Source: CBDFMG01 sp965221205 [NCBI: bacterium] (GTDB lineage: Bacteria > SM23-31). Taken from it: DNA of 64,000 nt. Under the pieces are notes generated by a model, which was not told where the DNA came from, ran no database searches, and was given only the letters and a program-made list of their open reading frames with translations. The stretch lies in assembly GCA_965221205.1 (NCBI GenBank), contig OZ244870.1, positions 496,001 through 560,000 of the forward strand. Direction: 5' to 3'. Shown here piece after piece: positions 10,358 to 63,908 of this stretch. The position numbers and the translations under genes are program-made. The stretch's first letter is position 1. Each line of letters opens with the position of its first letter.

Positions 10358-10880
10358 GGAACTGAGGTTATTTTCGGATCACGTGTTACAGTATACTTGG
10401 AATGGGAAGAAAAAGTCACTATATTTATTGCTGGTACATCATGTCCCTTTTGTTCTGGGGACCGAATGTGATGCACGCTGCTTTGGTGGGAAACATACGG
10501 GAACCAGTGGTTGCGGCAATGCCGGTACAATAAATGTTTTCGGCATGGAGGAACGTCACGGGAAGTTATTTACTACGATGTGACTGCCGCTTGATGAACG
10601 GGATCAGGGGCACCGCTGAGCAAGGAAGCGTCTTCTCCACTGCTCCGTTCCGTTCGTATACATCGCTGAAGTTTTTGGTAGACAGCGTACGGTCGATCAT
10701 AATACAGTAGTGCATTACAGGACGTCGTCATAGTAACGGCCTTGAGGGGTTCTGGTCATGTGCACAAGAAAGACAGTACCATGGTGTCAGCAAAAATCAT
10801 TGCCTGGTATACCGCAAGGAAATGGAATGGAGATACAGTTACAGAAACCAAAATCCATACCTGCATTTTATTATAGAGAA
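10358..10880 (+). mobile_element. IS1595-family (ISXO2-like) insertion sequence remnant, copy 1
   Basis: The translated pieces match an IS1595-type transposase: a zinc-ribbon start (CPFCSG), the DDE-domain segments CFGGKHTG, TINVFGMEERHGK and YTDTF-like pieces, and the end MEWRYSYRNQN. The same sequence is found inverted at 59550-60338. Compared with that copy, this one lacks roughly 230 bp between the zinc ribbon and the DDE domain and has several frameshifts. It is inactive. Its tail runs directly into the region upstream of the redoxin gene. Confidence 0.8.
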
Positions 10881-31018: not shown

Positions 31019-32425
31019 ATGATTAAAAAACGGGCAATATCCGTCATTTTTACCCTTATTATCCTTGTGATCGGAACTGATGCTTTTGCCCAGACAGCAA
31101 AGCAAAGGTATGAGATTCTGAGACTTATACGACATGAAAAATTTGATCTCATTCTACCCGGTGCGATGCGGGACAATAATGTTGATATGTGGATCCACGT
31201 CGTGAAGGATGGCGATCCCGACCCCCTCGACCTGGATTTGGGAGGAGATATTGACTTTTCTGTGACCGATACACTCGGTTACTATATCTTTACGGACCGC
31301 GGTGGCGACAGGATCGAGAGAGCGCTTTTCGGCGGATCCGCAGAGCGGGGTCTTTACGATATATTCGACACCGAAAAAAACCTGCGGGCGTTCGTAGAGG
31401 AGCGGGATCCTAGGGTGATCGCCGTCAATATGTCCACCTGGCTTCATGCAGCCGACGGTCTTTCTTATACCGCATATTTGAGGCTGACCAAAGTATTGGG
31501 TGAGCAATATGCCGAAAGGCTTATTTCTTCGGAAAATGTCATAACCGATTTCCGTGTGAGAAGGATTCAGCGGGAGATCATCGCATTCGCAAATGCATGT
31601 GAAATTCATAGACAGATCCAGGAAGCAGCTATCCGAAGGATCCAGCCGGGGATAACGACACGCGAAGATATTGGCTGGTGGGCTGAGGACCAGCTTATTT
31701 CCCGGGGAATGACTCCCAGATTTGCTCAAAACGGCAGCGGTCCCAGTGTGCTGTATTCCGCTGTTACAAAACCTTCAGAATCGGTGGGTACCTTCGGCGA
31801 AACTACCGTGGCATATAGTTCAGAAACCGGGAAACCCGACTATATTTACAAGCGAGGCGATTTTCTTTCCTGGGACTGGGGCGTCAGTTATCTGAACTTC
31901 GGTACCGACTATAAAAGAAACGCATATATTCTTCGGGATGGCGAAACCAGGGCGCCTGAAGGTCTCCAACATGCTTTCGACCGCGGTTTACGGGCAAGGA
32001 AGATCATCCGAAAAAATATCAGGGCGGGCCGTACGGCAGGTGAAGTGCTGAATGCGGTTGTCCGCACATTGGAAGCCGAAGGGTATATCTATACTCCTTA
32101 TTCCGATATCGGATCCATCGACAAGCAGATCGTTGATGCACTCGGCGATAATGAGAAGTCAGGAATCTCGCTCGATTTCCATCCACTTGGCAACACCGGC
32201 AACGGTGATACCGAACCTGGTGCGAGATTCGCACCATTCAGTCCCGCCCGTCTACTTTTTGAAATTCAACCGAACCATCTGTTTTCATTTGAATACATGG
32301 TCCATACATGGATTCCCGAAGGGAATGGCAGAGTAAGCATTAATTTTGAAGATAACCACATCGTTACAGAAAATGGTGTCGAATGGCTATATCCTCCTAA
32401 CGAAAAGATTATTATAATACCTTAA
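31019..32425 (+). CDS. Secreted M24-fold (aminopeptidase P/creatinase-like) protein with complete metal site
   Basis: This 468-residue protein has a Sec signal peptide (cleavage near DAFAQ). The N-terminal creatinase-type domain begins KFDLILPGAMRDNNVDMWIH, and a C-terminal pita-bread domain follows. All five expected metal ligands can be aligned: D in LSWDWGV, D in GTDYKRN, H in DFHPLG, E in SFEYMV and E in NFEDNHIVTENG. Family enzymes cleave Xaa-Pro bonds or hydrolyse creatine-like amides, so a periplasmic or surface hydrolase is likely. It is the best preserved + strand member of a nine-locus family in this window. Confidence 0.8.
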   Translation: MIKKRAISVIFTLIILVIGTDAFAQTAKQRYEILRLIRHEKFDLILPGAMRDNNVDMWIHVVKDGDPDPLDLDLGGDIDFSVTDTLGYYIFTDRGGDRIERALFGGSAERGLYDIFDTEKNLRAFVEERDPRVIAVNMSTWLHAADGLSYTAYLRLTKVLGEQYAERLISSENVITDFRVRRIQREIIAFANACEIHRQIQEAAIRRIQPGITTREDIGWWAEDQLISRGMTPRFAQNGSGPSVLYSAVTKPSESVGTFGETTVAYSSETGKPDYIYKRGDFLSWDWGVSYLNFGTDYKRNAYILRDGETRAPEGLQHAFDRGLRARKIIRKNIRAGRTAGEVLNAVVRTLEAEGYIYTPYSDIGSIDKQIVDALGDNEKSGISLDFHPLGNTGNGDTEPGARFAPFSPARLLFEIQPNHLFSFEYMVHTWIPEGNGRVSINFEDNHIVTENGVEWLYPPNEKIIIIP

Positions 32426-34143: not shown

Positions 34144-35724
34144 ATGTGGATCATGGGGACCTTGTTAGTTTATTTCAGGAATTTCGCGAGTTTATAAGAC
34201 CAGAGGTTGTCAACGGTGTGCCCGATTTCACAGCCGCCGCAATGAAAAAGCAATACAGCGGATTGCAACAGCTTCAAAAGCGTCTTGCTGCATTCGATAT
34301 TCGTAATTGGAGTGTCGCCCATCAGGTCGACTATCACGTCGTTCGGGCGGAGATGAACGGTGTAGAATTTGACCATCGGGTTTTGAGGCAGTGGGCTCGT
34401 GATCCCGGTTTCTACAATCTTACCGACGGTATATATCCCCGTCTTCTTGTTCACCATTCGAGGAGTTTGTCCAACTGGGGACTGTATAAACCGGAAGTTC
34501 CCCTCCCGGAAAACAAAGTTGCTGATTTCCGGGTAAAACTGGAAACGGTCCCGAAGCTTTTTGCTCAGGCAAAGATAAATCTTACGGAAGCGGCAGGAGA
34601 TCTCGCAACGGTCCGCTATCCGTGTCAAGGAAAAAGACGTCGAGATGCTCACCCGGTTTCGGGTGCAGTTTGCCGAACACTATCCCGGGCTGGTCTCCAC
34701 TGTCGACCGGGCGGTGACCGCTACGGAAGATTTTCGTGACTGGCTTATAGCAAACAAGGATACAATGACTGCGTCTGCCGGAGTAGGGAAGGAGAACTAT
34801 AACTGGTGGATGAAAAATGTCCACCTAATTCCCTACACATGGGATGAGTTTCATACGATGGTCCGGAGCGAATACAACAGAGCGCTATCCTTTTTGAAGT
34901 TGGAAGAACACAAAAACCGGAAACTTCCCGATTTTACATTGACATTGAGCGAAGAAGAAAATATTCGGCGGCAGAGAGAGACTGCGGCAAAAGTCATGAG
35001 TTTTCTCCGTGAAGAAGAGATCATAACCGTCCCTGAGGACCTCCCGCCGCTTCCGCCTGACCACTATCCGCGAATGTGGGGTATGAGCGCGTATCTCAGG
35101 CCTAATTATCGTGGTTATTTCGAACAGACAAATGATCGTGAACCGATGTGTAATGTTCTTCACGTACTATTCAGCCATTATTATGTCGGCGGAAGAAAGA
35201 TATGGTACCAGGCGGGAGACACACGGCCTATTCGCAGCGATATTCGTCTTTATGATATGCATGAAGCCAGATCCGAAGCTTTTGGATTCGGTGTTGAAGA
35301 GTGGCTGATGCAGACAGGTTTATTCGATGATCGGCCAAGATCAAGAGAGATCACGTACATCTGGATGGCATTTCGTACGGCTCGGGCATTGTCAGACTTA
35401 AAAATGCACAGCAACGAGTATACCTTAGAAGAAGGACGTAAGAATTTTGCTGAATTACTTCCCTATCCGTGGGCGGACGAGGACAGTGACGCGGTGTGGT
35501 GGGATACTGAAGAGACTCTGCGCGCACCGGGTCACAGTTCGAATTACACAGTTGGAAAGAATATGATGCAGCAGCTTATGGCAGACAGGTCGAGACAGTT
35601 AGGTGACACATTCACCATTCGACAATTTTTTGATGATTTCATAAACGGAGGCATCATCCCTATTTCTCTGACACGGTGGGAGTTGATCGGTCTCAATGAC
35701 CAGATGCAGTTTTTACTCAGATAA
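34144..35724 (+). pseudogene. DUF885-like peptidase gene, frameshifted
   Basis: Two frames together cover about 525 codons of a DUF885-type protein (YNLTDGIYPRLLVHHSR ... SEAFGFGVEEWLMQTG ... LTRWELIG). The frames join near 34613, where removing one C from GTCCGCT restores LATVAIRVKEKDVEML. The ATG at 34144, placed after AAAAGGAG, opens a different frame that stops quickly, and no signal peptide is present, so the 5' end is also damaged. Family members are secreted or lipoprotein metallopeptidase-like proteins. The family name is from memory. Confidence 0.7.
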
Positions 35725-35940: not shown

Positions 35941-37631
35941 ATGCTCATTGATTGGCTCGTCATTATTGTATATCTAAGCAGTTTAATGGTAATAGGAGTC
36001 TGGAGTGCCAGAAAGATAAAAACAGCGTCAAGCTTTTTTATCACTGAGCGTAACTTCGGAAAGACCATGATGACGTTTTTTAACTTCGGAACGGGGACAA
36101 ATACGGATCAGGCAGTCACCGTAGTGTCAAAGACGTTTGTGTCCGGGGCTTCAGGAATCTGGTATCAGTGGTTATGGTTGTTTGCCACGCCTTTCTACTG
36201 GTTACTGGCTCCGCTGTTCAGGCGTATGAGAGCGGTAACAACAGCAGATTATTTATTCAAGCGTTATGGTCGGAGTGTAGCCGTCCTTTTCGCTCTGGTC
36301 GGCATGGCACAATTATCAGTCAATATTGGTGTAACGCTCAGAGCATCGAGCGCCCTCATTACAGCTGTAACCGGTGGTGCAATCAGCACTGCTCTTGCCA
36401 TATTTGCACTGACAGGTCTGTTCGTATTTTATGGTGTGCTTGGTGGATTGAAAGCAGCGATAATCACCGATTTCATTCAGGGCATTTTAACCTTCGTGCT
36501 CTCATTTATGATTCTGCCATTTGTTTTAAGTGCAGTGGGAGGACTGGGAGGATTAAAAATAATTGTCAATGATCCGTCAATGTTTGAGATTGTAACTCCC
36601 GGTGAGATCACGACACTGTATATCATAGTAATTGCTTTGAATGGACTTATTGGCTGGGTTACAGCTCCCTATTCCATGGCAATGTGCGGTGCTGGCAAAA
36701 GCGAGTATGACTCGAGAGTAGGACTCGTCGGCGGGGATGTTTCTCAAACGGGTATGCACGATCGCATGGGTCCTGACGGGTCTGTGCGGTATAGGCTTGT
36801 ACACAGGTACAGCTGTCAACCCGGACTTTGTTTGGGGCTTCCTGGGACGTGATTTCCTGCCAAATATAGCGCCGGGTCTCATCGGTGTTTTTGTCGCTTC
36901 CATGCTGGCTAGCGGTCATGAGTTCATGTGATTGCTTTATGGTTTCCTCAGCCGCACTGTTCACGGAAAATATTTATAAACCTTTGATCAAGCCTGACCA
37001 GGATGATAAGCATTATATTCTGATAGGGAGAATTGCCTCTGTAGTTGTTGTTATCTTTGGCATTATCGTAGCGTTCGCAATTTCGGGTGTAGTGCAGGGT
37101 TTAGAAGTTATCTGGAAAGTGTATGCAATGATGGGAATCGCTATATGGGCAAGCTTTTTCTGGAGAAAAGCGACTGCTGCCGCTGCTTGGGCTTCAACTT
37201 TGAGCAGTTTTGCAACCTGGTTTTTCACAAGCACTATCGATTTCATTGGCTGGGACTTTAATGCTCATTTTGCCCATTATCTACCCGGCTTCATGTTGTT
37301 TGAAGGTAACCTTTCTCTGCCGTGGCAGATGATTTTCTATTTAACAGTAGGGCTGGTTGTCATGGTAGGTGTGAGTCTGTTTACAAAACCGCCCGCCAAA
37401 GAAAAGCTTGACCGCGTTTATGAATGTCTGCGTACTCCGGTCCTGCCGGGTGAATCCGAAGTCGAACCGCTCACTCTTCCTGAAGGTACAAAACCTGCTC
37501 CGCGATCGGTTTTGATCGAACATCCCGATTTTGAGATTATGAAACCGAGCCAAGTGAGTGTGCTGGGATTCCTTGCATCATGGCTGGCAGTGGGATTGTT
37601 GATCGCCGTATTTATCTGGATCATAAAATGA
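35941..37631 (+). pseudogene. Sodium/solute symporter (SSS family), two frameshifts
   Basis: Three successive frames make one SSS-family transporter of about 560 codons with 12-13 membrane segments (start DWLVIIVYLSSLMVIGVWSA, core NFGTGTNTDQAV, end LIAVFIWIIK). The breaks are single extra G bases. One is in the GGGG run at 36733-36736 (restoring GLVGGMFLKRVC), the other near 36916 (restoring MLASVMSSCDCFM). With two exact one-base insertions, either recent inactivation or sequencing error is possible. Family role: Na+-coupled uptake of sugars, amino acids or small amines. Confidence 0.85.
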
Positions 37632-44070: not shown

Positions 44071-46298
44071 ATAAGATCGTCAAAATCGATGTTACCTATG
44101 GCATTTTTATGTTTTTTTGTATGGACGGTAATATCTTGTACGAAATCTCCTGAGGGTTTACCTTCCTATAAGAATTCCGACTTGTCAATTGAAGAACGGA
44201 TAAACGATCTCATGCCGAGGATGACCATTGGTGAAAAAGTTGTTCAGCTTGCGACTTTATACCCTGACGCGGTAGTCAGACTGGGAATTCCTCATATCAA
44301 AGCGGGAGAAGCGTTGCACGGTATATGTCTCAAGCATGTGACAAGCTTTCCGTCACCGCTTGCAATGGGAAGCACCTGGGATCCGGAAATAATTGAAAAC
44401 ATGGGTTCGATCGTCGCGAAAGAAGCACGGGCACTTGGTACCCATCACCCATACTTGGTATTCTTATCGATCCGAGATGGGGAAGATCAGAAGAAAGCTA
44501 TGGGGAAGATCCTTACCTTGTTTCCAGAATCGAAGTTGGTTATATCAAGGGATTACAGGGTACAGGGGATGAACTGTTTGATAAAAATCATATAATTGCT
44601 TCCGCAAAGCACTATGCAGCTGACGGACAACCTCTCGGCGGGATCAATTCTACACCGATGGATATATCGATCCAGAGACTTCACGAAGTATTTCTTCCTC
44701 CTTTTCGTGCAGTTATGACCGATCATTCAAGTGTCTATCTGATCGATGAAATGCCGAGAAAAACTTACGGCTTTAACGGTCACGTGATAAGCGATCATGG
44801 AGACATCAGAGCTCTGCACACGCGTCATCTTGTAGCTGAAACATTGACCGATGCAGCATGGCTTGCATTGGAAACCGGAGTAGACCAGGATCTTCAGATA
44901 GAACCACCATGGGAACAGCGGACTTACGGACCTCCGCTTCTTGAAGGTATTCGGGACGGCAGCATTCCAGTAGAACTTGTTGACAGAGCGGTTCAGAATG
45001 TCTTAATGTCCAAATTCCGGTTCGGTCTATTTGATGACGATGAACCTATATATGCGTGGCAGGATCATTGGGCATCCGGTGATGAAGGCACCGGCCCTAT
45101 TGAAGATTATCCTGAATATGTGGAATTAAAACATACTAAAGCGGTTCGAGGTCAGGACGAAAGATTAAACGATTATTTCAACAAATTACACCGTGGGGAT
45201 TTTCCCCGGGAAAACTGGGAAGAGGTCATTTACGACGAAAAAAGCGATGCTATCGCTCTTGATGTCGCCCGGAAGGCCATTACATTAATAAAAAATAAAG
45301 ATAGTCTTCTTCCGTTGGATAAAACTAAAGTTAATCAAATAGCGGTAATCGGTCCGAACGCCGATGTGGAAATTCTCGGTGCATACTCCACACCGGAAGC
45401 CCGTCATTATGTGAAGGTACTCGATGAAATTAAAAACATTGTCGGAAATGATGCCGAAATTCTCTATAGTGAAGGCTGCAGCCTTTTCGACCTGGAGAAA
45501 GAAAATATTGCTGAAGCAATGGGTATTGCTAAACATTCTGATGTGACTATACTTGTCCTTGGAGGAAATGAACTAACCGCACGGGAAGGAGAGGATACAG
45601 ACACCATAGACCTTCTGGGATACCAGAATGAACTTGTCAAGGCTGTATACGAGACAGGAATTCCAGTCGTTGTGATGTTTTTGCAGAGCAGACCCATGTC
45701 CTTTCCATGGATAGCCGAAAATATTTCAGCAGTACTTGCCGGCTGGTTACTCGGGCAGGAAACCGGAACTGCAGTAGCTGAGGCTCTCTTTGGCACAATA
45801 AACCCCGGAGGAAAGCTTACCGTTTCAATCCTAAGAAATGTCGGACAGATTCCTGCATATTGCAACAGATTGCCCGGGAGCGATGATAGTTACCGGGATT
45901 CACCAAGCGGCCCCTTGTACCTATTTGGTCATGGTTTAAGTTATACAACATTCGAATATTCTGATCTGCATATCCAAAAAATCTCATCGACATCAGCATC
46001 AGCCGAAGTAAGTGTTGATATTACAAATTCCGGTGGCAGGACTGGTGATGAAGTCGTACAACTATGCGTCCATGACCAATATTCCTCGGTAATACGCCCC
46101 GTTAAAGAACTTAAAAGTTTCAGCCGGATAACGCTTTTGCCTGATGCAACGAAAACGGTGACGTTCTTTCTTGATAAAAATGCGTTTGCGTTTTATGATT
46201 CGGAAAATGCCGATTGGGTTGTGGAACCGGGAAATTTTACTATTATGGTTGGAAGTTCTTCTAAAGATATCAGGTTGTCGGCAACACTTAAACTTTAA
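44071..46298 (+). pseudogene. GH3-family beta-glycosidase lipoprotein gene, frameshifted
   Basis: The first frame (44071-44470) gives a lipoprotein signal (WTVISCTKS) and the GH3 start (SIEERINDLMPRMTIGEK ... GEALHGI). The second frame (about 44474-46298) continues with DPRWGRSEESYGEDPYL, ASAKHYAADG, VISDHGDI, GGNELTAREGED, LFGHGLSYTTFEY and a fibronectin-like end. A deletion with frame change lies near 44465. The expected start codon after AAAAGGAG reads ATA at 44071, so the ATG seems lost as well. GH3 enzymes release glucose or xylose from oligosaccharides. Confidence 0.9.
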
Positions 46299-47543: not shown

Positions 47544-47580
47544 ATTCTCTTTTAAAGAATTGATATGGGGAATATCAGTT
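47544..47580 (+). promoter_or_regulatory. Conserved upstream element with inverted repeat
   Basis: This is the clearest copy: CTCTTTTAAAGAATTGATAT then GGGGAATATCAG. It holds the inverted repeat TGATAT-GGGGA-ATATCA, which suits a dimeric regulator. It ends 22 bp before the ATG at 47602. Confidence 0.6.
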
Positions 47581-47601
47581 TAACCAAGGGAGGAAAAAGT
47601 T

Positions 47602-48893
47602 ATGAAATTTCGAGGTATGATTTTTTATTTGCTGTACTGTTCACAGTACCTGTTGCCAATGCACAGGGTCGGGAAGAGGACGATCTGAAGGAATGGAATA
47701 ATCCGATACGCAGGGAAAAGTTTGACCTCGTTCTACCCCAAGTCATGAAAAAGAACAATATCGATATGTGGATCCATGTGATGAGAATAGCAATTCCTGA
47801 TCCCTTTGGTGCAGGAGCACTGGGCAGTACTTCCGGTGTTTTCATCTTCACGGACCGCGGCGGTGACCGGATCGAACGCGCGGTTCTTGGACGTCGCTGG
47901 GGAGCTTCACAGCGTGAAAGAGAAGAGTTGGAGACTAATTTAATAGAAGAATATGGTGTCTACGATATAATCCACGACCCGGTTCGTGTGCAGGAACCGG
48001 TGGGAAGCCCGATGACAGAATATGATTTCCGATTTAAGGGCATCAGAGAATTTGTTGAAGAACGTGACCACAATCACATTGCTGTAAATTACATTCATGA
48101 TCTGGGGCCGTGGGAAACTTACAGAGGAGCACGAGACGGCATTTCGCTTACAGACTACCTTCTCTTGATTGAAGAGCTCGGCGATAAATATGCCAACAGG
48201 CTGTTCTCGTCTGAATATGTTATAATGGATTACATTACAAGAAAGGTACCGAGCGAAATTCAGCTACTGAAGAGAATAAGTAAGGAAGAAGTTGAACGAG
48301 TAAAAAAAGCTTTTGCTGCAATCGTGCCGGGTGTCACTAAGAATCAAGAGTCAGGAGTAACTGTCTTTCGCCGGATGAGCACAGGACTGTCACAAAGGGG
48401 AAGGAGTGCCGACTGGGAAAACAGTGTGATTCAGGGAGGCGACATCCTTGCCTCACCAGAGCGGGGAATGCACGCCTATGTGCTCCAACCATCAGGACGG
48501 GTCTTACCCCACTACACGCGGAAATTTGAGGATGAAGGGGATATTATTAGGGATAACCAATTGCATATGGCTATCCCAAAGAACAATTTCTACGTTTATT
48601 CCATAGGTTTTGATCCTGAAAGAACGCGCCCTAATATGGACGCTTATGGCATGATGAAAGGAGCGCGTGATGGGAAGGAGTTCGAGAATTATCTTGGCCC
48701 CAGGATTGATTCTCTCTGTCCGGATTGGTCGAAAGATATACCACTTCCACCAAATCACCACTTTGTTTTAGAATATTTTTTCTATATGCCGTCGCCTACA
48801 TTCAACGATGACGAAGACCAATATTTATTATTTTGGAATCATGAGGAGGCGATTGCCACCGAAAGTGGTGTCGAGTATTTATCTCCACCGTAA
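47602..48893 (+). pseudogene. M24-fold secreted protein, frameshift in the signal peptide and metal site lost
   Basis: The ATG at 47602 follows GGGAGG and begins KFRGMIF. Adding one T to the run at 47621-47626 would continue into LFAVLFTVPVANAQ, the family signal peptide, and then into the long open frame. As it stands, the frame is only reachable from an ATG at 47565, which gives a poor signal. The N-terminal domain is normal (KFDLVLPQVMKKNNIDMWIH), but the C-terminal domain is shortened. Both Asp ligands are gone (ILASPERGMHAYVL), the His is replaced by Tyr (DAYGMM) and the last Glu is absent; only E in VLEYFF remains. It is probably non-catalytic. Confidence 0.8.
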
Positions 48894-48962: not shown

Positions 48963-50285
48963 CTATTTTATTACATACCATTCTGTTTGGTGTCCGTCAA
49001 GGAAGTAAGCACCATCTTCAGTAAAAGCAGCTTCGTCCTCTAATATGATGATGACATCTTGACCATCCCACTCCGGTACGGAATGGGAATTATCCAACTC
49101 AACCGAATAAACTGTGTTATAGTGCATTGGATAATCACCTCTTACAAGAGGGTCAAACGGTGTACCACCCGAACCTAATGAAGGGCCTCCGCTGTGACCA
49201 TGAAATCCGATAGGATGAGTATATATATTCGACTTTAATCCCTCAGCCTGAGCTTTGCGTATAGAATTAAACCAGATCTCGTTTCCAGTCAAATCTTCTT
49301 TGAATTCACCCAAAAATATTTCCTGCAATCGGTTTGCTTTTCGCAGTGCTTCTTTGAGGCCTTCCGGGACATCATTTTCACGCTTTTTTAATACATAGGC
49401 AACAGCTTGCATATCACTCACAAGCCCAAGATATTCTATTCCCCAGTCTGCGCTGATTACATCTCCCCGCCTAATTACGGTATTAATCAATCTACGAGGT
49501 GCAACATCAATTCGAAAATCGTCGTCAGGGTCGTCGTATTTCTCACGTTCTTTAATACTTCTTTGTAGCACTACCGTGGGAAAGAAGGAATTATCAACAC
49601 CGACGTCTCTGATTTTCTGCCGAATCCACCAGGTAACATCGTTTGTGGTAGTTACATTAGGAATAATCACTTTATTAGAAAATGCTTCGGCTATAATATC
49701 GTGGCCGATTCCACCGATATAACGATACGCACTTAATTCTTGAGGGCTTTTTGTCTCCAACCATTCGTTGCAGAGATCTTGCGCGGATACCAACTGTGAT
49801 GCATACTGGCCAAGCGCATTTTCCAGTCTTGTTTTCATCGCAGCAGATAATCCATCACAGCTATTCCAGATTTCAGATGTATTTATACCAATTGTCTGAG
49901 GATCGTTTTGCTCAACGACCCTTATAATATTACGAAAACCTGCATCTATTAATTCAACCCGATTACCTTTATTTACAATTGCCATAAATCCTACGCCGAA
50001 CATGTTCGTTCGTTCACCGAGAATTGAAGCTGATACAGGATCAACATTATTCTCACGGTCAATAATTATCCACATGTCGATACCTGCTTGGGTCATCATC
50101 CCCGGCAGAAGATTTTCAATTCTCCATTGTGCCCATTTTTTTGTTAACTCCCATCGAGTTTTCTCAGGTAATATATTTTTTATATCTTGAACATCACCGA
50201 TTCTGAGATCCTGAGCAAGTGCAATGTTTCCGGCAAATGAGGAGGTTATTAATAGAACAATCAAATACAGTTTTGTTTTTGTCAT
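48963..50285 (-). CDS. Secreted M24-fold peptidase-like protein with complete metal site
   Basis: This 440-residue protein has a signal peptide (cleavage near IALAQ). An N-terminal creatinase-type domain (LLPGMMTQAGIDMWIIID) and a pita-bread domain follow. All five ligands align: D in ISADWGI, D in VSDMQAV, H in IGFHGHSGG, E in YSVELDN and E in ILEDEAAFTEDG. It is more distant from the + strand members than they are from each other, and it is opposite in direction, so it may be the ancestral stand-alone enzyme. An Xaa-Pro-type peptidase role is inferred. Confidence 0.85.
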   Translation of the reverse strand: MTKTKLYLIVLLITSSFAGNIALAQDLRIGDVQDIKNILPEKTRWELTKKWAQWRIENLLPGMMTQAGIDMWIIIDRENNVDPVSASILGERTNMFGVGFMAIVNKGNRVELIDAGFRNIIRVVEQNDPQTIGINTSEIWNSCDGLSAAMKTRLENALGQYASQLVSAQDLCNEWLETKSPQELSAYRYIGGIGHDIIAEAFSNKVIIPNVTTTNDVTWWIRQKIRDVGVDNSFFPTVVLQRSIKEREKYDDPDDDFRIDVAPRRLINTVIRRGDVISADWGIEYLGLVSDMQAVAYVLKKRENDVPEGLKEALRKANRLQEIFLGEFKEDLTGNEIWFNSIRKAQAEGLKSNIYTHPIGFHGHSGGPSLGSGGTPFDPLVRGDYPMHYNTVYSVELDNSHSVPEWDGQDVIIILEDEAAFTEDGAYFLDGHQTEWYVIK

Positions 50286-52139: not shown

Positions 52140-53588
52140 ATGATATCTCGAGTAATGTTATTTTTAATTACAGTGATGGTCACTGTACCTAATGCAATAG
52201 CACAGCGAGGCGGAGATTCCTTCAACCCACTTCCGCAGCGTACGGTAGAGACCGATAGGGAAGCTCTTCGTCTGATGAGGAATGACAAACTTGACCTTGT
52301 TCTTCCAGGCGCAATGCGCGACAATAATGTGGACATGTGGATTCACGTCACTCGTCCAGGAGATCCAATGGCTCCATATTTTGGATCATCCTCTGGAAGG
52401 ACCAGTTATTTGATTTTTACCGACCAAGGAGACAGAATTGAACGAGCTGTGTTTGGTGGGCCGGGAATATCAGGGTATGGTCGTACCGGTGCCGCTGGAG
52501 CTGTTGAAAATATTGACATACAGGGTTCCTTGAATGTTGCACGAGCTTTTTCCGGTTATAATTATAACAACACTGATCCCAGTCAGGGATTTTCGATTCC
52601 CGAAGTTTACGAAGAAATAATGGAGTTTGTTGCTGAACGCGATCCGCAAACAATAGCGGTAAATTATTCAAAATGGCTGGCTGAAGCTGATGGGATTTCG
52701 CATACCCAGTATCTGCAATTGGAAGAAATTCTAGGACCTAAATATTCTCGGAGAATTGTGTCTGCAGAGAATGTCATTACAGATTTCGTGGTAAGAAGGA
52801 CAAGCCGGGAAGTGGCGGCACAGGTCGAAGTATTGGCACTTGCTCGTCAGCGTTCTAAACAGAGATTGTCTCAGGTAATACCTGGTGTAACCACAATAGC
52901 GGATATAAATGCTCGAGTGTACTATTCAGCAGTAAACACACCTGATAAAACAGTGCCAACCTCTACGCCTGATGTACGGTGGTTTATTCATAATCCTGAT
53001 TATGTAATACAGCGTGGTGATTTATTTGTTGGCGGAGGGGGTGGTCCGGGAGGAGACTACATGGGTTTTGGAGTAGACACGAAGATTCACGCCTATATAT
53101 TAAGGGAAGGGGAAACAAAAGTCCCCGATTTTTTACAGGAGGTCTATGATCTGGCGATAGCAGGTCAATGGATCATGCGGGAAGGTATGAGAGTCGGCAT
53201 GACTTCCGGAGAATCTTTAGAGGCCATGGTCAAACTCATGGAAGAAGCAGGCTACATATATACGCCTTTTATAGATGATGGTATAGAAGATTACAAGATT
53301 ATACAGAAGGCGCTTGCTAGTACTGATAAGCCAGGATTTTCCATAGACAATCACGGTTTTGGTATAGGTGGCGACGTCGGAGCCTCCATTGCGCCATTTC
53401 GGAAAGACCGGGATCATTTAGTGATTCAGGAGAATAATCTCTTTGCTTATGAGTATATGGTCCATAAGAAAATTGATGAAAGGCCCGGTTATCCGCTGGC
53501 CTTTAATATTTCAAATCCTCAAATTATAACCAGCAAGGGAGTTGAATTTATTCAACCACCAAATGAAGAAATATTCATTATAAAATGA
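52140..53588 (+). CDS. Secreted M24-fold protein with partial metal site
   Basis: This 482-residue protein has a signal peptide (MISRVMLFLITVMVTVPNA, cleavage near AIAQ) and the normal N-terminal domain (KLDLVLPGAMRDNNVDMWIH). In the pita-bread domain the first Asp is replaced by a glycine run (LFVGGGGGPGGDYMG). The second Asp (GVDTKIH), His (DNHGFG) and first Glu (AYEYMV) remain, and the last Glu is lost (NISNPQIITSKG). With two of five ligands gone it may bind substrate without hydrolysis or use one metal. The frame itself is fully open. Its 5' end is almost the same as that of the pseudogene at 37722. Confidence 0.8.
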   Translation: MISRVMLFLITVMVTVPNAIAQRGGDSFNPLPQRTVETDREALRLMRNDKLDLVLPGAMRDNNVDMWIHVTRPGDPMAPYFGSSSGRTSYLIFTDQGDRIERAVFGGPGISGYGRTGAAGAVENIDIQGSLNVARAFSGYNYNNTDPSQGFSIPEVYEEIMEFVAERDPQTIAVNYSKWLAEADGISHTQYLQLEEILGPKYSRRIVSAENVITDFVVRRTSREVAAQVEVLALARQRSKQRLSQVIPGVTTIADINARVYYSAVNTPDKTVPTSTPDVRWFIHNPDYVIQRGDLFVGGGGGPGGDYMGFGVDTKIHAYILREGETKVPDFLQEVYDLAIAGQWIMREGMRVGMTSGESLEAMVKLMEEAGYIYTPFIDDGIEDYKIIQKALASTDKPGFSIDNHGFGIGGDVGASIAPFRKDRDHLVIQENNLFAYEYMVHKKIDERPGYPLAFNISNPQIITSKGVEFIQPPNEEIFIIK

Positions 53589-56278: not shown

Positions 56279-58261
56279 ATGTTTACCCGACAAATATTTT
56301 GCGTGATCCTTTCGTTGTCTTTTTTTCTGAATTTTTGTAGCTCTGAAACAACCGAAATGGAATTAGCCGATGCACAGGCTCAGGAAGACACTGATCGAAA
56401 GGAATTGATGAACCAAATTCGCCGGGAAAAGTTTGACCTCGTACTGCCACACGTCATGCGGGAGAACAATATCAACATGTGGATTCATGTGGTGAGGGAA
56501 GCTATCCCAGATCCCTTTGGTGCAGAACACCTGGGCAGTGCTTCGGGTGTTTTCATCTTCACGGACCGCGGCGGTGACAGGATCGAACGGGCGATTCTCG
56601 GTATTCGTTGGAGACAGGGTCCGACTATTAGTGGCAGAGCGAGCAGTTTGGCTCATAAGCTGGTTGAAGAATGTGGTGCCTATGACATAATCGGAGAGAC
56701 AACGTTCCAGAGAGAAATGCCGGGAGGCCCGGAATCGCAATATGATCTCAGATTTAAAGGCTTCGGAGAATTTGTTGCCGAACGGGACCCCAAACACATT
56801 GCCGTAAATTACTGGGATGAGTTGGGACCACTCGCGGGAACACCCTCAAGAGATGGCATTTCACATACAGACTACAACCTCTTAGTTAAAGCTATCAGTA
56901 ATAAATATGCAAGAAGGATTGTCTCGTCTGAACACCTGATAAAAGAGTATGTGTCAAGACCGGTGCCGAGCGATTCGAATTGGATTGAACCGACAACAAC
57001 TGACAAGACAATGTCCAGACCGTGGGAACGAAATTACAGCAATCAAAAAGAATTGCTGAATAAAATTCGTCGGGAAGAGTTTGACAATCTTCTGCCACAA
57101 GCCATGAGAAAGAACAATATCGACATGTGGATTCATGTACTGAGAGAATCGAATCTTGATCCCCTTTCAGATGTTTTTGGCAGTACTTCCGGTGTTTTCA
57201 TCTTCACGGACCGTGGTGGTGACAGGATCGAACGGGCGGTTCTCGGTCTACGATGGAACGGTGATGATTCGGATGCGGTTGATAAAAGTGGAGACTACGA
57301 CTTTGTCGGGGAAGCACTATCTCGGAGTGCAATGCCGGGAGGCCCGGAATCCGAATATGATCACCGATATAAAGGTGTCGGAGAATTCGTTGCCGAACGA
57401 GATCCCAGACGCATTGCAGTTAATTACTGGAACGAGCTGGGACCTCCCGTGGATGACTCAGGATGGAATGATGGCATTTCGCATACAGACTACAATCTGT
57501 TGGTCAAAGCTGTCGGTGATAAATATGCGAAAAGGATGGTCTCGGCTGAATATCTGAGAGTGGATTACTTAGCGGAAGCAGTGCCGAGCAGAATTGAACT
57601 AATGAAGCGAATTTACACGGAGAGATACGAAAGTATAGATAGAGATTTTGCTAAAATTGTTCCGAGTAAAACCAAAAACAACGATCTTGAGAACAGTGCA
57701 ACTGCTATGAAACCGGAAAGAATTTTTACCCCTGCCGATTATGTGTTTCAGAGAGGCGACCTGATTCAAATAGACGCACGATATGCCTATGTGCTCCGTG
57801 AAGGAGAGACGGAGATTCCTCCGGAACTCGCAAAAATCTGGGCAGATTCATGGAAAATCCGCACGGTTATGGAAGATAACATCAAGGTGGGGCGTACCGC
57901 CCGTGAAACCTTTGAAATCCTCAAGCGGAAATGTGCGGAAGTCGGAATTATTGTTAATAATAGGCAGCAGTACTATAAAGATCTTGATCCTGAAAAAACC
58001 CAGGTTGGTATCGATGCTCATGGCCTCCAAGAGGATCCTTACCCTGCTAGAATTGGTCCTTTTGGTCCGGATTGGATGCGGGATTGGACAATCTCACCTG
58101 TTCACCATTTTACTACTGAATACTTTGTCTATATGGCATTACCAAGTTCAAAGCACCAAGTGAAATATTTAAATTTATGGTTTCATGACCCTGCATATGT
58201 TACTGAAGATGGAGTCGGGTATATATATCCACCGCAAAAGGAGCCTTATTATATTCAATAA
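56279..58261 (+). CDS. Secreted M24-fold protein with duplicated N-terminal domain
   Basis: This 660-residue protein is about 200 residues longer than its relatives. It has a lipoprotein-like signal (LNFCSSE) and two copies of the N-terminal domain in tandem. Both copies carry RREKFDLVLPHVM / RREEFDNLLPQAM, NMWIHV / DMWIHV, GVFIFTDRGGDRIERA and GISHTDYNLLVKA (about residues 42-235 and 257-440). A single C-terminal pita-bread domain follows. There the loop with the first Asp is deleted (LIQIDARYAYVL keeps one Asp), His (DAHGLQ) and first Glu (TTEYFV) remain, and the last Glu is His. It is probably not a normal peptidase. The frame is fully open and preceded by GAAGGAG. Confidence 0.82.
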   Translation: MFTRQIFCVILSLSFFLNFCSSETTEMELADAQAQEDTDRKELMNQIRREKFDLVLPHVMRENNINMWIHVVREAIPDPFGAEHLGSASGVFIFTDRGGDRIERAILGIRWRQGPTISGRASSLAHKLVEECGAYDIIGETTFQREMPGGPESQYDLRFKGFGEFVAERDPKHIAVNYWDELGPLAGTPSRDGISHTDYNLLVKAISNKYARRIVSSEHLIKEYVSRPVPSDSNWIEPTTTDKTMSRPWERNYSNQKELLNKIRREEFDNLLPQAMRKNNIDMWIHVLRESNLDPLSDVFGSTSGVFIFTDRGGDRIERAVLGLRWNGDDSDAVDKSGDYDFVGEALSRSAMPGGPESEYDHRYKGVGEFVAERDPRRIAVNYWNELGPPVDDSGWNDGISHTDYNLLVKAVGDKYAKRMVSAEYLRVDYLAEAVPSRIELMKRIYTERYESIDRDFAKIVPSKTKNNDLENSATAMKPERIFTPADYVFQRGDLIQIDARYAYVLREGETEIPPELAKIWADSWKIRTVMEDNIKVGRTARETFEILKRKCAEVGIIVNNRQQYYKDLDPEKTQVGIDAHGLQEDPYPARIGPFGPDWMRDWTISPVHHFTTEYFVYMALPSSKHQVKYLNLWFHDPAYVTEDGVGYIYPPQKEPYYIQ

Positions 58262-59549: not shown

Positions 59550-60338
59550 AAGGTAATTAGGTCAAAGACGGACTAGAGTGAATTTTGATTAAAGGATGGA
59601 ATAGATTTTGGTTTCTGTAATTGTATCTCCATTCCATTTCCTTGCGGAATATCAGGCAATGACTTTTGCTGACACCATGGTACTGTAAGCGTCTTTCTTT
59701 TAAATGACAAGAACCCCTCAAGGCTGTTACTATGACGACGTTCGGTGATGCACTATGTGTTATGATCGACCGTACGCTGTTAACCAAAAAACTTCAGCGA
59801 TGTATACGAACGGAACGTATCAGTGTAGAAGACGCTCCCTTGCTCAGCGGTGTCCCTGATCTCGTTCATCAAGGCATCATCGACGACCGTAGTAAATATC
59901 TTCCCTTGACGTTCCACCATGCAGAAAACATTTATTGTACCGGCACTATCGCGACCTCTGGTTCCCGTACGTTTCCCACCAAAGCAGCTTACGTCACATT
60001 CTATCTTGCCGGTAAGTCTTCTCAATTCCTGAAATCATAAATCTCCTGTCGATAAAGCATCTATCTGCCTCGCGCCGTCGTGGAGCAAAAACCAAGACCC
60101 CTGACAGCTTTATTGGCAGGTATCTCCAAAGAAACATAATGCAGTAGAGCAAGATCGTCCTTGAACCGCTTCGGGCTCTCTTTACAAGAACATCCGAGTA
60201 CCTGTAAAACGATTATCACGCAAACGGTACAGACGATCCCCAGAACAAAAGGGACACGATGTACCAACAATCAATCCAGTGACTTCTTCCATTCCAAGTA
60301 TACTGTAACACTAGGCCCGAAAATAACCTAAGTACCTT
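59550..60338 (-). mobile_element. IS1595-family (ISXO2-like) insertion sequence remnant, copy 2
   Basis: The minus strand encodes, in several frames, the zinc ribbon (VPFVLG..YRL), CFGGKRTG, the DDE region GTINVFCMVERQGKIFTTV, EQGSVFYTDTFRSYTSLKFF, and the end MEWRYNYRNQNLFHPL. The ends are imperfect inverted repeats (AAGGTAATTAGGTCA at the left, the reverse complement of TAACCTAAGTACCTT at the right), giving about 789 bp. I saw no target-site duplication. It begins 6 bp after the stop of the HEAT/restriction remnant. It is longer than copy 1 but also dead. Confidence 0.85.
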
Positions 60339-60547: not shown

Positions 60548-60709
60548 ATGAAAAGTGTCATAGAGTCGTTCGTTGAAGTTTCGAATACTAAAAAAAGAGA
60601 GTCAATTGCAGGAAAGACTACAAAAAATAATTTTTGTATGACAAGGACTATTACCAAATATGAGAAAGAATCTCCGGATCGTACATTGTTTTCTGCAAGA
60701 AGTATATGA
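60548..60709 (+). CDS. Candidate RiPP (graspetide-like) precursor peptide
   Basis: This 53-residue frame has a GGAG ribosome site 6 nt before its ATG. Its stop overlaps the start of the ATP-grasp gene by 4 bp (ATGA), the pattern expected for a precursor coupled to its maturase. The peptide has no signal sequence. Its C-terminal part (residues 31-53) holds Thr/Ser and acidic side chains, with TRTITKYEKESPD at 32-44. This is loosely reminiscent of the TxKxPSD cores of microviridins, in which Thr/Ser/Lys are joined to Glu/Asp. No database support; position is the main argument. Confidence 0.6.
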   Translation: MKSVIESFVEVSNTKKRESIAGKTTKNNFCMTRTITKYEKESPDRTLFSARSI

Positions 60710-61607
60710 TTTTGGCCGTTTACACAAATTCTGATGATGTTACTGCTGATTATATATGCGATAAAAAGCCAGATTGGGTTAAAATTATTAGATTTAACAC
60801 GGATGTCCTTTTTCCAATAATATTATCAAATGATGCCAAACAATTGCTTAGAACCATTGACGTATTATGGTACAGGAGACCTTTTGAAAACGAGATTCTT
60901 TTAGATGAGATAGAGGATAAAGTACGTTTTTCTGAAAATGAAGAGGCTGTTTGGAACTATTTACTGCAAATTCCCCAAAAAAAGTGGGTAAATTATCCTG
61001 TAAACAACTGGCTTGCTGAAAAAAAATTAACCAATTAATACAAGCAAAAAAATACGGCCTTCACACACCAGATTGGATTTTGACAAACGATGATAAAACT
61101 GCAGTGGAATTCTTAAATCGGTATAGTTGGGATTGCATTATAAAGCCGATAAACAGCGGCTATTTTACCAACAATGATAAAGTTTACCATATTTATACAA
61201 ATGCCACGGTAAAGGAAAAGATTAATCTATCTATTCTTCATAAATGCCCTGCATTTTTTCAACAAAGAATTGAAAAATCATTTGATGTAAGGACTGTATA
61301 TGTCAACGGAAATACAATATACGTACGTATTCTCGGTGGCGGTTTAGACGTAAGAAGAAATGAGATGGAAGGGCTAAAATATGATCTGGTAGAGCCACCT
61401 GATGACGTTGCTTTTGCATACAATAAACTAATTGATTCTTATTCGCTTCGTTTTTGCACTTCTGATTTTGTGGTTACAGGAGAAAATAAATGGGTTTTTT
61501 TGGAAAATAATCCAAACGGCCAGTGGGTTTGGATGGACGAACAACTTCATGGTGAACTACGGACATTTTTTTATAATAATTTAAGGAACATCCGTGAGTA
61601 TGAATAA
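60706..61607 (+). pseudogene. ATP-grasp peptide ligase (graspetide maturase-like), one frameshift
   Basis: Two frames join into a protein of about 300 residues. It shows the marks of MvdD-type ATP-grasp ligases: LWYRRPF, KPINSGY, FFQQRIEKSFDVRTVYVNGN and the metal-binding end FLENNPNGQWVW. These enzymes form ester or amide bonds between side chains of a short peptide, using ATP. The frame break lies in the run of eight A at 61019-61026; nine A would restore AEKKINQLIQAKKYG. This single homopolymer slip could be real decay or a base-call error, so the gene may be functional. It overlaps the precursor upstream and the membrane protein downstream. Confidence 0.8.
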
Positions 61608-62193
61608 GCTTCTTTTGTGTGTATTAGACCGCATTCTTTTCCTCGTTGTCAGGGTTTTCATATTGGATACAATAAGTTTATCTGAAGTACAAGAAAGACG
61701 ATATAATAACGATAAGGAACACACTGTTAAAATTCGGTCGTGGGAGGCCGGAGTATTCTTATATAATCAAGCTAGAGATAGGGAAGGATTACTCCAAAGC
61801 AAACTTGCAGGAATTTTGACTATTTTGTCAATATTAGTTGGATTATTCAGCCTCAGTGTCGTAATGCCTACATATTCCCCATGTCTAATACAATACTTCT
61901 TACAATGCTTCTGTCTAGTTCTTGTATTTTCTGGAATTATTTCGGCGATTGGAGCATTATCTATTTCTACGGTAGTGGTGCCAGATTTAGATGATTTTTC
62001 TACTCCACCTTCTTTCGATACTAAAACCAGAAAAGAATTTGAAGATGCGATAATTGATATGGGGTGTAGATCAGACTTTCAAGCAGATTGTGTCAAAATC
62101 TCACTAGTTGTCATTTTTATTTCGATTACTCTGTACATACTTGGTTTTCTTTTTAAACCCTTCTTTTTACATAACCTTCTATTAAGTATTTAA
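61600..62193 (+). CDS. Small membrane protein of the graspetide-like operon
   Basis: About 197 residues, starting at the ATG at 61600 or the GTG at 61594; either start overlaps the end of the ATP-grasp gene. There are three to four hydrophobic segments: the N-terminus, GILTILSILVGLFSLSV, FCLVLVFSGIISAIGALSI and LVVIFISITLYILGFLF. A soluble helical stretch before the second (WEAGVFLYNQARDREGLLQS) resembles the linker of two- or three-helix effector or sensor proteins. I do not recognise a family. Export, immunity or an unrelated role are all possible; the tight overlap suggests it works with the peptide. Confidence 0.65.
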   Translation: MNKLLLCVLDRILFLVVRVFILDTISLSEVQERRYNNDKEHTVKIRSWEAGVFLYNQARDREGLLQSKLAGILTILSILVGLFSLSVVMPTYSPCLIQYFLQCFCLVLVFSGIISAIGALSISTVVVPDLDDFSTPPSFDTKTRKEFEDAIIDMGCRSDFQADCVKISLVVIFISITLYILGFLFKPFFLHNLLLSI

Positions 62194-62319: not shown

Positions 62320-62353
62320 AATAAGCCCTGAAGAAAATCATTCAGGGCTTATT
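62320..62353. terminator. Bidirectional terminator between convergent genes
   Basis: A perfect 13-bp stem AATAAGCCCTGAA / TTCAGGGCTTATT encloses an 8-nt loop, with T-rich sequence on one side and A-rich on the other. It lies between the graspetide-like operon and the minus-strand M24-like gene. Confidence 0.85.
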
Positions 62354-62426: not shown

Positions 62427-63908
62427 TCAATGAATCAGTAATATTTTCTCATTTGGTGGATGAAGAAATTCAACTCCCCGGTTTGTTAGAACATGATTGC
62501 CCGATATACTGATGGATATCGGAAAACCGGGCCTCTCGGGAAGGTTTGTGTGTACCTGAAATTCATGTGAAAATAGATGATTCTCCTGGAACGTCAAATG
62601 GTCCCGGTCTGAGCGGAACGGCGAAACTGAGGGACCGACAGACACACTTGTGCCCCCTGAAGTAGCGGTTCCGTTATTAATACCCTGGCTGTTAAGGTCA
62701 AGGGAAAATCCTGATCTGTCCGTGTTAGCCAACGATTTCTGAATGAGTTTATAATCTTCCGTGCCAACATCGGTAAAGGGCGTATGGATGTAACCTGCTT
62801 CTTCCATTGCTGATACGACAATCTCAAAAGTCTCACCACCTGTTCTGCCAACTTTTATGTTTTTACGAATTATCTCACGAGCTTCTAACCCTTTGTCAAA
62901 GGCATATTGTATACTCCTGGGAACACTTGTTTCCCCTTCCCTCATAATATATGCATTGCGTTTGAAAACTGTCGCAAAGTAGTCCAGGTATTTAAGCCCA
63001 AGATCGTACGTAAAAAAATCACCTCGCTGTAAAACATAGTCATTGTGATGAATCCACCACCTGGCATCGGGCGGATCAATGGGTTCGGATTTTGCTGAAT
63101 AAAGAACCCGGGGGAGAAGTATACCATCACCACGATCTTTTCTTATTAAATTTTTTTCATAGAGACGCTGCTGAACCCACCATCCTACATCCCCCAGCGT
63201 TGTTACACCGGGCGTGATAACTTCACGAGAAAGAGCTCGTTCAAGGATCTGGCGGTGTATCTCTGCACCATTTGCAAAAGCAATTATTTCCCGTTGCACT
63301 CTTCTCACCCTGAAGTCGGTGATCACGGCCTCGGCAGACACTATCCGTGCCGAATACTTCTGCCCCAGGATCTTTTCCAGCTTTAGATATTGAGTATATG
63401 AGATTCCGTCTGCCACAGCGAGCCAATCGGATGAATTAATTGCGATCGTTTTCGGATCACGTTCAGCAATAAATTCTGTTATCTCGTTGTAGACTCCAGG
63501 ATCTTGTTTGCCGAAATCATAACCAGCAATTGCTCGTTCGACATCAAGAGAGCCGAAAATATCAAAAAAATCGGGATGCCCTCCACTTCCAAAAAGAGCC
63601 CTTTCGATCCTGTCCCCTCCTCTGTCTGTAAATATCAAATAACCTGATACCGATCCAAAATGCAAAGCCATCGGGTCGGAGAAACCAGCACGAATGACAT
63701 GGATCCACATATCCACATTATTGTCGCGCATGGCTCCCGGCAAAATAAGGTCAAGTTTTTCCTTTCTAATCAGATGAATGATTTCTTGTTGAGCTTTTGC
63801 ATTCAGACCTTTTTCCTGTGCACTAGATATAGATACTGCAAACACCATATATAATATTAAATGTAAACTCAAAAACACTCTTTTGGTAACGAAGTTTTCT
63901 TTAGACAT
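62427..63908 (-). CDS. Secreted M24-fold protein with partial metal site
   Basis: This 493-residue protein has a signal peptide (cleavage near ISSAQ) and a GGAGG ribosome site upstream on the minus strand. The N-terminal domain is typical (KLDLILPGAMRDNNVDMWIH). In the pita-bread domain the first Asp is kept (FTYDLGL) and so is the first Glu (FSHEFQV). The second Asp is Val (ATVFKRN), the His is Asn (DLNSQG) and the last Glu is lost (SISGNHVLTNRG). It is closest in layout to the complete member at 31019. The frame is intact; catalysis by the normal M24 mechanism is unlikely. Confidence 0.82.
   Translation of the reverse strand: MSKENFVTKRVFLSLHLILYMVFAVSISSAQEKGLNAKAQQEIIHLIRKEKLDLILPGAMRDNNVDMWIHVIRAGFSDPMALHFGSVSGYLIFTDRGGDRIERALFGSGGHPDFFDIFGSLDVERAIAGYDFGKQDPGVYNEITEFIAERDPKTIAINSSDWLAVADGISYTQYLKLEKILGQKYSARIVSAEAVITDFRVRRVQREIIAFANGAEIHRQILERALSREVITPGVTTLGDVGWWVQQRLYEKNLIRKDRGDGILLPRVLYSAKSEPIDPPDARWWIHHNDYVLQRGDFFTYDLGLKYLDYFATVFKRNAYIMREGETSVPRSIQYAFDKGLEAREIIRKNIKVGRTGGETFEIVVSAMEEAGYIHTPFTDVGTEDYKLIQKSLANTDRSGFSLDLNSQGINNGTATSGGTSVSVGPSVSPFRSDRDHLTFQENHLFSHEFQVHTNLPERPGFPISISISGNHVLTNRGVEFLHPPNEKILLIH

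What the first reader, a model, noticed from the sequence alone, without database searches (positions are those of the whole stretch)
60548..62193. Compact peptide / ATP-grasp ligase / membrane protein operon: possible new graspetide system
Three overlapping genes: a 53-residue peptide whose stop overlaps the ligase start by 4 bp, an ATP-grasp enzyme with the MvdD-type end (NNPNGQW), and a 3-4 helix membrane protein overlapping the ligase end. The peptide carries TRTITKYEKESPD, a Thr/Lys-Glu/Asp pattern related to but distinct from microviridin cores. There is no exporter or peptidase of the usual type. The order and overlaps are seen directly; the RiPP assignment rests on family knowledge of ATP-grasp maturases; the product is inferred.
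Basis: partly seen in the sequence, partly recalled or inferred. Interest (0 to 1): 0.78.

Follow-up and report, generated by a model that had tools for sequence, protein, structure and literature searches.

The report
Cross-linked peptide operon with membrane partner
Three tightly packed bacterial genes very probably make a small peptide stapled by an ATP-using enzyme, together with a membrane protein that usually travels with this branch of enzymes and looks like a distant relative of a pore-forming anti-phage protein; the peptide class is known, the membrane link is not explained.

Summary
Window 60548-62193 encodes a 53-residue peptide, an ATP-grasp ligase whose start overlaps the peptide stop by 4 bp, and a 3-4-helix membrane protein overlapping the ligase end by 14 bp. 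The ligase is frameshifted in an A8 run (61019-61026), otherwise collinear with an intact relative (47% identity, Synechococcus J7-Johnson).

The graspetide reading is supported. Relatives in many phyla have the same gene order, a leader motif hhxxFxE and one to six T-x-T...E..D cores before the ligase. Of 471 window ORFs of 35-150 aa only this peptide carries both motifs in order. Nested Thr-Glu/Asp ester links are the likely product; none is shown.

The new part is the third gene. In the ligase clade that holds the window it follows the ligase in 17 of 19 other members (two of these were found through it). Its three-helix domain looks distantly related to PycTM (pore effector of Pycsar): profile scores exceed all reversed and permuted decoys. 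Two free-standing relatives sit in Type II restriction-modification loci. Whether it exports, protects against, or is controlled by the peptide is open. Unnamed membrane proteins in graspetide loci are already in print (Makarova 2022), so this is a new variant of a known kind.

The parts
60548..60709 (+). Predicted graspetide precursor, 53 aa (57 aa from the ATG at 60536). Leader motif VIESFVE (residues 4-10), core TRTITKYEKESPD (residues 32-44).
   Evidence: Sequence; motif comparison with 15 precursors of 14 related loci and test over window ORFs; core profile rank 1 of 2,470 frames, E 0.6.
60557..60577 (+). Leader motif hh-x-x-[FY]-x-E (VIESFVE)
   Evidence: Same pattern in 15 of 15 precursors compared, one of them (L014) with T for E; by eye also in L020, L095 and L096 printed there.
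60641..60679 (+). Core TRTITKYEKESPD: three Thr spaced by two as predicted donors; Glu41 and Asp44 as the acceptors shared with the nearest relative; Glu39 a further possible acceptor
   Evidence: Repeats of relatives.
60706..61607 (+). ATP-grasp ligase, about 300 aa when read through, interrupted by a frameshift in the A8 run 61019-61026
   Evidence: (47% to L009); residues invariant in the 7-row alignment A1, including K107, K147, R217, D254, E267, N269, are present.
61019..61026 (+). A8 run with a -1 frameshift between the two ligase pieces
   Evidence: the aligned stretch of L009 is not an A run and its frame is open.
61594..62193 (+). Membrane protein, 199 aa, 3 TM helices plus N-terminal hydrophobic helix; probable distant PycTM relative
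62320..62353 (+). Terminator-like hairpin (13 pairs) with a T-rich tail, possible end of the operon
   Evidence: 2 found in the region against a shuffle mean of 1.1, so weak.

Best explanation
A minimal graspetide operon. The leader (VIESFVE) docks the 53-residue precursor on the ATP-grasp ligase, which phosphorylates Glu and Asp side chains in TRTITKYEKESPD and lets Thr hydroxyls attack, giving probably two nested omega-ester links (Thr to Glu41 inside Thr to Asp44; a third at Glu39 is not excluded), a hairpin of the kind described for OEP6-1. The third gene overlaps the end of the ligase and gives a membrane partner of this peptide; its three-helix core looks distantly related to the PycTM domain. 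I take its most likely role to be that of the membrane-side partner that binds or passes the peptide (export or self-protection), since the operon itself holds no exporter or peptidase and the peptide no GG site. Shown by computation: gene order and its conservation, family of the ligase, leader and core motifs, linkage of the membrane gene, profile similarity to PycTM. Inferred: the cross-links, their register, all of the membrane protein's function. In the sequenced copy the ligase frame is broken, by a sequencing error or by recent decay.
For: Ligase family. Same trio in relatives: in the 20-row clade holding the window (support 100/99) the membrane gene follows the ligase in 17 of 19 other rows; L095 and L096 among them were found through the membrane search, without them 15 of 17. 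The misses are L021, where a transposase gene follows the ligase, and L024, with no such gene. In 89 sources the membrane profile reaches E<1e-3 in 24 (7 are the seeds); in 23 of 24 it lies just downstream of the ligase, in L085 just upstream of the precursors. In 72,556 plasmids a membrane relative (query L005) occurs in 5 records, the query's own included, each beside the ligase. Precursor motifs. The nearest relative L009 has two cores, TKTVTRTSGESPDKY and LKTRTDVSKEAPDRSL, close to the window's. PycTM relation: hhalign A4-A5 38.8 against 21.3 for reversed A5 and a maximum of 28.7 in 60 permuted decoys; A7-A5 48.1, A4-A6 78.6, A6-A5 44.3, against 20.6, 22.0 and 21.4 for the reversed partners; three Bacteroidota proteins are hit by both profiles (G602, G658, G685).
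Against: No product is known and the window ligase is frameshifted. The window core lacks the second Asp of REExDxD and the profile match of the core is weak (E 0.6). The leader lacks the Phhx(1,2)h motif that Makarova et al. find in about half of precursors. The PycTM match of the window protein alone is not significant (PADLOC E 0.15; none at 0.1); A4-A5 has probability 70 only; the decoys were reversed or permuted, no real unrelated TM-hairpin family was compared. Foldseek gives no PDB match with E under 0.1. In three phylum scans (882 genomes) 16 of 24 genomes with a membrane-family match have no ligase in the 3.5 kb held around it, so the domain is not specific to graspetides. An M24-family gene lies close by on the other strand (62427-63908), so a nearby peptidase cannot be ruled out.
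Confidence: 0.62

Rival explanations
1. The membrane protein is a PycTM-like killing effector and the cross-linked peptide is its ligand or brake: a peptide-gated membrane pore used against phages or rivals inside the producer, not an export system.
For: PycTM relation by profile comparison with decoys; PycTM is described as forming a membrane-spanning pore in abortive infection (PMC11224242, passage); two free-standing relatives of the membrane domain sit in Type II restriction-modification loci, in L107 with a 4-bp overlap after a BsuBI/PstI-type endonuclease and an Eco57I-type methylase, in L108 beside another methylase and a predicted endonuclease; no exporter or peptidase gene among the three.
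Against: No cyclase or other known sensor among the three genes; flanks of 16 clade loci (83 proteins) show scattered defence hits, no common one, and no control was run; two other free-standing relatives (L109, L110) lie beside lpxD-like genes and L146 beside an unknown gene (by eye).
Confidence: 0.22
2. The membrane protein is a scaffold or activator of the ligase at the membrane, needed for modification itself.
For: Partner-protein-dependent graspetide synthetases exist (rosaritide, PMC13097080, abstract); a membrane scaffold in microviridin synthesis is named in a reference title listed in PMC8939145; strong linkage and close or overlapping genes.
Against: L021 and L024, in the same clade, lack it next to the ligase; nothing tested directly.
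Confidence: 0.15
3. The locus is a decayed remnant without function in this organism.
For: Ligase frameshift; three other frameshifted genes in the window (about 34.7, 36.8 and 44.6 kb); IS1595-type remnant just upstream and a second copy at 10.4-10.9 kb; the Acaryochloris plasmid copy L001 is decayed as well.
Against: One lesion seen in about 1,650 bp of the operon; peptide and membrane frames open; the lesion sits in a homopolymer run where assemblies err; several frameshifts in one window also fit sequencing error.
Confidence: 0.25
4. The ligase modifies another target (a protein, like RimK) and the short ORF is chance.
For: The RimK family also matches, weakly (18 bits, E 0.001).
Against: Conserved leader and core in the ORF just before the ligase across many phyla; the best graspetide model gives 123 bits.
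Confidence: 0.04

Closest known systems
Graspetides with T/E/D cores, often in tandem (thuringinin, plesiocin, OEP6-1; groups of Lee et al. 2020, known here only through PMC8939145 and PMC12291112)
   Same: Single ATP-grasp ligase, cores of Thr donors and Glu/Asp acceptors, tandem repeats in relatives; nested links in OEP6-1 (passage).
   Different: Window core is a single copy with E-x-x-D and no second Asp; leader hhxxFxE; no group assignment was possible because the group motifs were not available to me.
Uncharacterised membrane proteins of graspetide loci: clusters 18 and 40 of Makarova et al. 2022 (PMC8939145, section 7)
   Same: Membrane protein of unknown role in ATP-grasp directons; cluster 18 mostly in loci without known peptide transport. 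Possibly the same family.
   Different: Their sequences were not readable for me, so identity is untested; the words Pycsar and transmembrane do not occur in that main text.
PycTM, membrane effector of Pycsar
   Same: Charged helix, conserved Lys before TM1, TM hairpin, polar stretch, third TM; profile similarity over 74-158 columns.
   Different: No pyrimidine cyclase in the trio; linked to a graspetide ligase; Pfam Collagen repeats in 8 of 25 family members.
TgmB / TIGR04187 ATP-grasp maturases
   Same: Best-matching curated family.
   Different: Below its cut-off (123 of 350 bits); apart from the 51-row actinobacterial branch in the tree; no methyltransferase among the three genes.

Membership tests
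Graspetide biosynthetic locus | ATP-grasp ligase of the MvdC/MvdD/TgmB superfamily | tested here: met
   the copy is frameshifted, domain and key residues are present when read through.
Graspetide biosynthetic locus | Adjacent precursor with conserved leader and Thr/Ser/Lys donors plus Asp/Glu acceptors | tested here: met
Graspetide biosynthetic locus | Side-chain macrolactone/lactam product | not testable with these tools
   Needs mass spectrometry.
Graspetide biosynthetic locus | Leader motif Phhx(1,2)h (about half of precursors in PMC8939145, so not strictly defining) | tested here: not met
   No Pro before the core of the window peptide; motif.
Microviridin (group 1) | PFFARFL leader | tested here: not met
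   Absent; motif quoted in PMC8939145.
TgmB equivalog (TIGR04187) | Score above the curated cut-off of 350 bits | tested here: not met
   123 bits for the C-terminal piece, 21 for the N-terminal piece.
Groups of Lee et al. (thuringinin, OEP6-1 and others) | Published group core motif | not tested
   Motif definitions not found in the papers read; the 2020 paper itself was not seen.
PycTM domain superfamily | Sequence-profile relation of the three-TM domain | tested here: inconclusive
   Window protein alone E 0.15; family profiles above all decoys tried. Distant relation likely, membership not shown.
Pycsar system | Pyrimidine cyclase (PycC) encoded with the effector | tested here: not met
   No cyclase among the three genes or the neighbours examined; the rest of the window was not searched for one.

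The most novel reading that the evidence does not exclude
The trio is a peptide-controlled membrane-pore module: a stapled (multi-ester) peptide acts as the ligand or brake of a PycTM-type pore, in place of the cyclic nucleotide of Pycsar, so that graspetides of this branch are intracellular signals of a conflict or suicide system rather than secreted protease inhibitors.
Probability: 0.18. Interest if true: 0.88.

Novelty: new variant of a known kind. Interest (0 to 1): 0.52.

Why it matters
Characterised graspetides are known mainly as protease inhibitors, and their roles, export and self-protection are largely open. Two branches of synthetases, in record titles of about ten phyla, mostly come with a PycTM-related membrane protein directly beside them. 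The unit is small enough to test directly, and could link peptide natural products with membrane-acting immune effectors.

Tried and rejected
No genome is held for the window, so host and reads could not be checked. Host: full-length matches of the window's MutS2 reach 38% identity in 61 genomes of the phylum of G002 (holds L015, titled Ignavibacteriae) and about 33% in 11 genomes of the phylum of G003 (titled cyanobacterium); phylum left open. Viral contigs: one stretch matched a pattern, no relative of the ligase (single-protein query, close relatives only). Programmed frameshift: A AAA AAA is a possible slippery run (recalled), but L009 is in frame without it and the ligases of the other loci are single ORFs; not favoured. 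Foldseek against PDB and BFVD: nothing with E under 0.1; VIA-align 2 rows up to Z 10.9 are helical bundles below the level its note calls telling, NINJ1 (Z 8.8, rmsd 3.5, 105 aligned) included. Pfam gave no family for the window's membrane protein at 0.1 or better, and for relatives collagen repeats and weak single hits. Defence-island reading from flanks: of 83 flank ORFs of 16 clade loci (mechanical choice, 110 aa or more, plus one added by hand) PADLOC at 1e-8 gives scattered methylases, IetS, DrmMI and mad2 matches (25 of 33 families shown); no control was run; not used as evidence. Group assignment: OEP6-1 occurs in one held paper. Papers: PMC8939145 sections 5 and 7, parts 1-2 of 3 of section 6, and find passages; PMC13097080 abstract, sections 5 and 7, passages; PMC12291112, PMC11224242, PMC11118758 passages; all others search listings only. 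Searches showed no paper linking graspetides and PycTM; this speaks only for those searches in the held library (PMC11118758 names both graspetides and Pycsar, apart from each other).

Regions not looked at: L111, L112 and L113 were fetched but their neighbours not examined; part of the print was cut.

Full report
WHAT IS THERE. The peptide is 53 aa from the ATG at 60548, with GGAG six bases upstream, or 57 aa from 60536. Its stop overlaps the ligase ATG by 4 bp. The ligase runs 60706-61607 but its frame is broken in an A8 run at 61019-61026; a -1 step there joins 107 and 193 residues into a 300-residue protein that aligns over residues 1-293 with an intact relative, L009 (47% identity). The membrane gene starts at GTG 61594, overlaps the ligase by 14 bp and ends at 62193; a terminator-like hairpin follows at 62320 (weak against shuffles). 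G+C of the trio is 34.0% against 41.8% for the window (13 of 250 sliding windows are as low or lower). An IS1595-type transposase remnant lies upstream (59783-60025, E 1.6e-7) and the element is repeated at 10.4-10.9 kb (85-87% identity). With the nearest ligase in a Synechococcus, this suggests lateral gain, which I did not test.

THE LIGASE. The C-terminal piece matches TIGR04187 (E 1.4e-35), MvdC (3e-26), MvdD (1e-21) and grasp-with-spasm (2e-17), all under their curated cut-offs, and AMdnB, CdnC and other graspetide-type ligases of known structure. A genome-wide scan kept 80 loci of 569 confirmed stretches, a capped list. In a tree of 92 ligases (the decayed L001 left out, the window read through) window and L009 pair with 100/100 support inside a 20-row clade (100/99) whose record titles name Planctomycetota, Bacteroidota, Ignavibacteriota, Verrucomicrobiota, Myxococcota, Acidobacteriota, Elusimicrobiota, Krumholzibacteriota and Cyanobacteriota, apart from a 51-row actinobacterial branch. 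The window row has an unusual amino-acid make-up and some rows have long branches, so fine placement is unsure.

THE PRECURSOR. In 14 related loci I took 15 upstream ORFs. All 15 have hh-x-x-[FY]-x-[ET] (T once, L014) and then one to five matches to T-x-T-x(4-7)-E-x(1,2)-D; a looser pattern gives up to six per precursor. The window has VIESFVE and TRTITKYEKESPD. Of 471 window ORFs of 35-150 aa only this one has both in order, and 0.0125% of 200,000 shuffles of the peptide do. The patterns were written with all sequences in view, so this is descriptive. The more independent test is the core profile built from 28 repeats without the window: the peptide frame ranks first of 2,470, with E 0.6. The usual core is T-x-T-x-T-x-x-R-E-E-x-D-x-D, which by its spacing suggests nested links; OEP6-1 is described as having three nested links (PMC12291112, passage). 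In the profile alignment the window's Glu41 falls on the first Glu and Asp44 on the first Asp, with one residue (Glu39) inserted before; L009 shares E-x-P-D. Hence two conserved acceptors, perhaps a third; the register is inference. Gene spacing: 4-bp overlaps of precursor and ligase are seen in window, L009, L014, L015 and L017; other loci have small gaps or overlaps, some of which depend on where the ORF call or match, not the true start, begins.

THE MEMBRANE PROTEIN. A profile of seven downstream proteins (window one of them) reaches E<1e-3 in 24 of 89 sources; in 23 it is just downstream of the ligase, in L085 just upstream of the precursors (L001 in two decayed pieces). Weaker hits downstream of the ligase (E 0.05-0.4: L007, L048, L077, L064) were counted as present in the tree labels. 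In the window clade 17 of 19 other rows have it, two of them (L095, L096) found through the membrane search; L021 has a transposase gene right after the ligase and L024 has none. In the neighbouring 21-row set I count 14 of 21, among them the four weak ones, L059 (decayed, by eye), L085 (upstream), and L099 and L105, which came from the membrane search; 0 of 51 actinobacterial rows at E<0.5. In 72,556 plasmids a relative of the L005 protein occurs in five records, its own included, always beside the ligase. One Lys is invariant and one Arg nearly so in 25 proteins. AlphaFold2 on 16 sequences gives pLDDT 86, pTM 0.81, with helices 3-22, 50-90, 98-122 and 143-198. Eight of 25 match the Pfam collagen repeat.

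RELATION TO PYCTM. PADLOC PycTM models match some members weakly (best 1e-4; 6, 4 and 2 of 25 members for three models at 0.1; window none). I fetched PycTM-matching loci from Bacteroidota (68 of 198 genomes at 1e-8, 30 loci held; 29 proteins extracted, 20 aligned, five long fusions and four near-duplicates left out). hhalign scores: clade proteins against PycTM 38.8; alphaproteobacterial/Bacteroidales-type proteins against PycTM 48.1; free-standing relatives against PycTM 44.3; clade against free-standing 78.6. Reversed partners score 15-22, and 60 block-permuted PycTM decoys, tried against the clade proteins only, at most 28.7. Real unrelated membrane families were not compared. The same Bacteroidota proteins are hit by both profiles in G602, G658 and G685. 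I read this as distant homology of the three-helix domain, stronger for the family than for the window protein.

WHERE ELSE THE DOMAIN OCCURS. In three phylum scans 24 of 882 genomes have a match at 0.001 (10 of 294, 3 of 292, 11 of 296). Eight have the ligase within the 3.5 kb held, three of these being the centres chosen for having the trio; 16 do not, eight of which are the ~400-residue PycTM-type proteins of Bacteroidota. Of the free-standing ones L107 overlaps by 4 bp a BsuBI/PstI-type endonuclease behind an Eco57I-type methylase, and L108 follows a DNA methylase and a predicted endonuclease; L109 and L110 are near lpxD-like genes (by eye); L146 near an unknown gene. So the domain is not bound to graspetides, and two cases sit in defence genes.

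HOW IT MOST LIKELY WORKS. Ligase and leader chemistry follow from the family. For the membrane protein I weigh export or self-protection highest because the trio has no exporter or peptidase gene and the gene goes with the ligase; Makarova et al. suggested transport for their cluster 18 on similar ground (PMC8939145 section 7). A peptide-gated pore is the bolder reading; PycTM is described as a pore former. A scaffold role has precedent in partner-dependent graspetide synthesis (abstract). None is shown.

NOVELTY. Graspetide loci with unnamed membrane proteins are in print. What I did not find in the searches named under Tried and rejected is the PycTM relation. Hence a new variant of a known kind, with the window itself an ordinary, perhaps broken, member of it.

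Noticed in passing
window 34146-35724, 35941-37631, 44089-46298: Three other genes (DUF885-like, sodium:solute symporter-like, glycoside hydrolase family 3-like; names by eye) are each split by frameshifts, the symporter apparently by two; points to indel errors in the assembly or to decay.
   Followed up: partly
window 10365-10861 and 59598-60329: Two diverged copies (85-87% identity) of an IS1595-type element remnant.
   Followed up: partly
window 31019-32425, 47565-48893, 48963-50285, 52140-53588, 56279-58261, 62427-63908: Six similar secreted M24-like proteins by eye (two of them scanned: Pfam Peptidase_M24 E 5e-8 and 1e-3); 56279-58261 holds an internal duplication; SusC/SusD-like pairs lie in the same window.
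   Followed up: no
L107:2956-6258, L108:3328-6056: The same 3-TM protein (80% identical) follows two different Type II restriction-modification cassettes in two genomes, overlapping the endonuclease by 4 bp in one: a candidate coupled membrane effector of restriction-modification systems.
   Followed up: partly
C-termini of the membrane proteins of L010, L011, L012, L013, L017, L020: Collagen-like GXY tails after the last TM helix (by eye; Pfam Collagen in 8 of 25).
   Followed up: no
L001:4001-5675: Acaryochloris plasmid pMB09 carries a decayed copy of the ligase-membrane pair; no precursor was recognised by the motif search.
   Followed up: partly
L145:213-2280: A Bacteroidota trio with a different repeated core (TETFTRTTGEPTDSDND, TSTDTFTSTEPSDSDND).
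   Followed up: no
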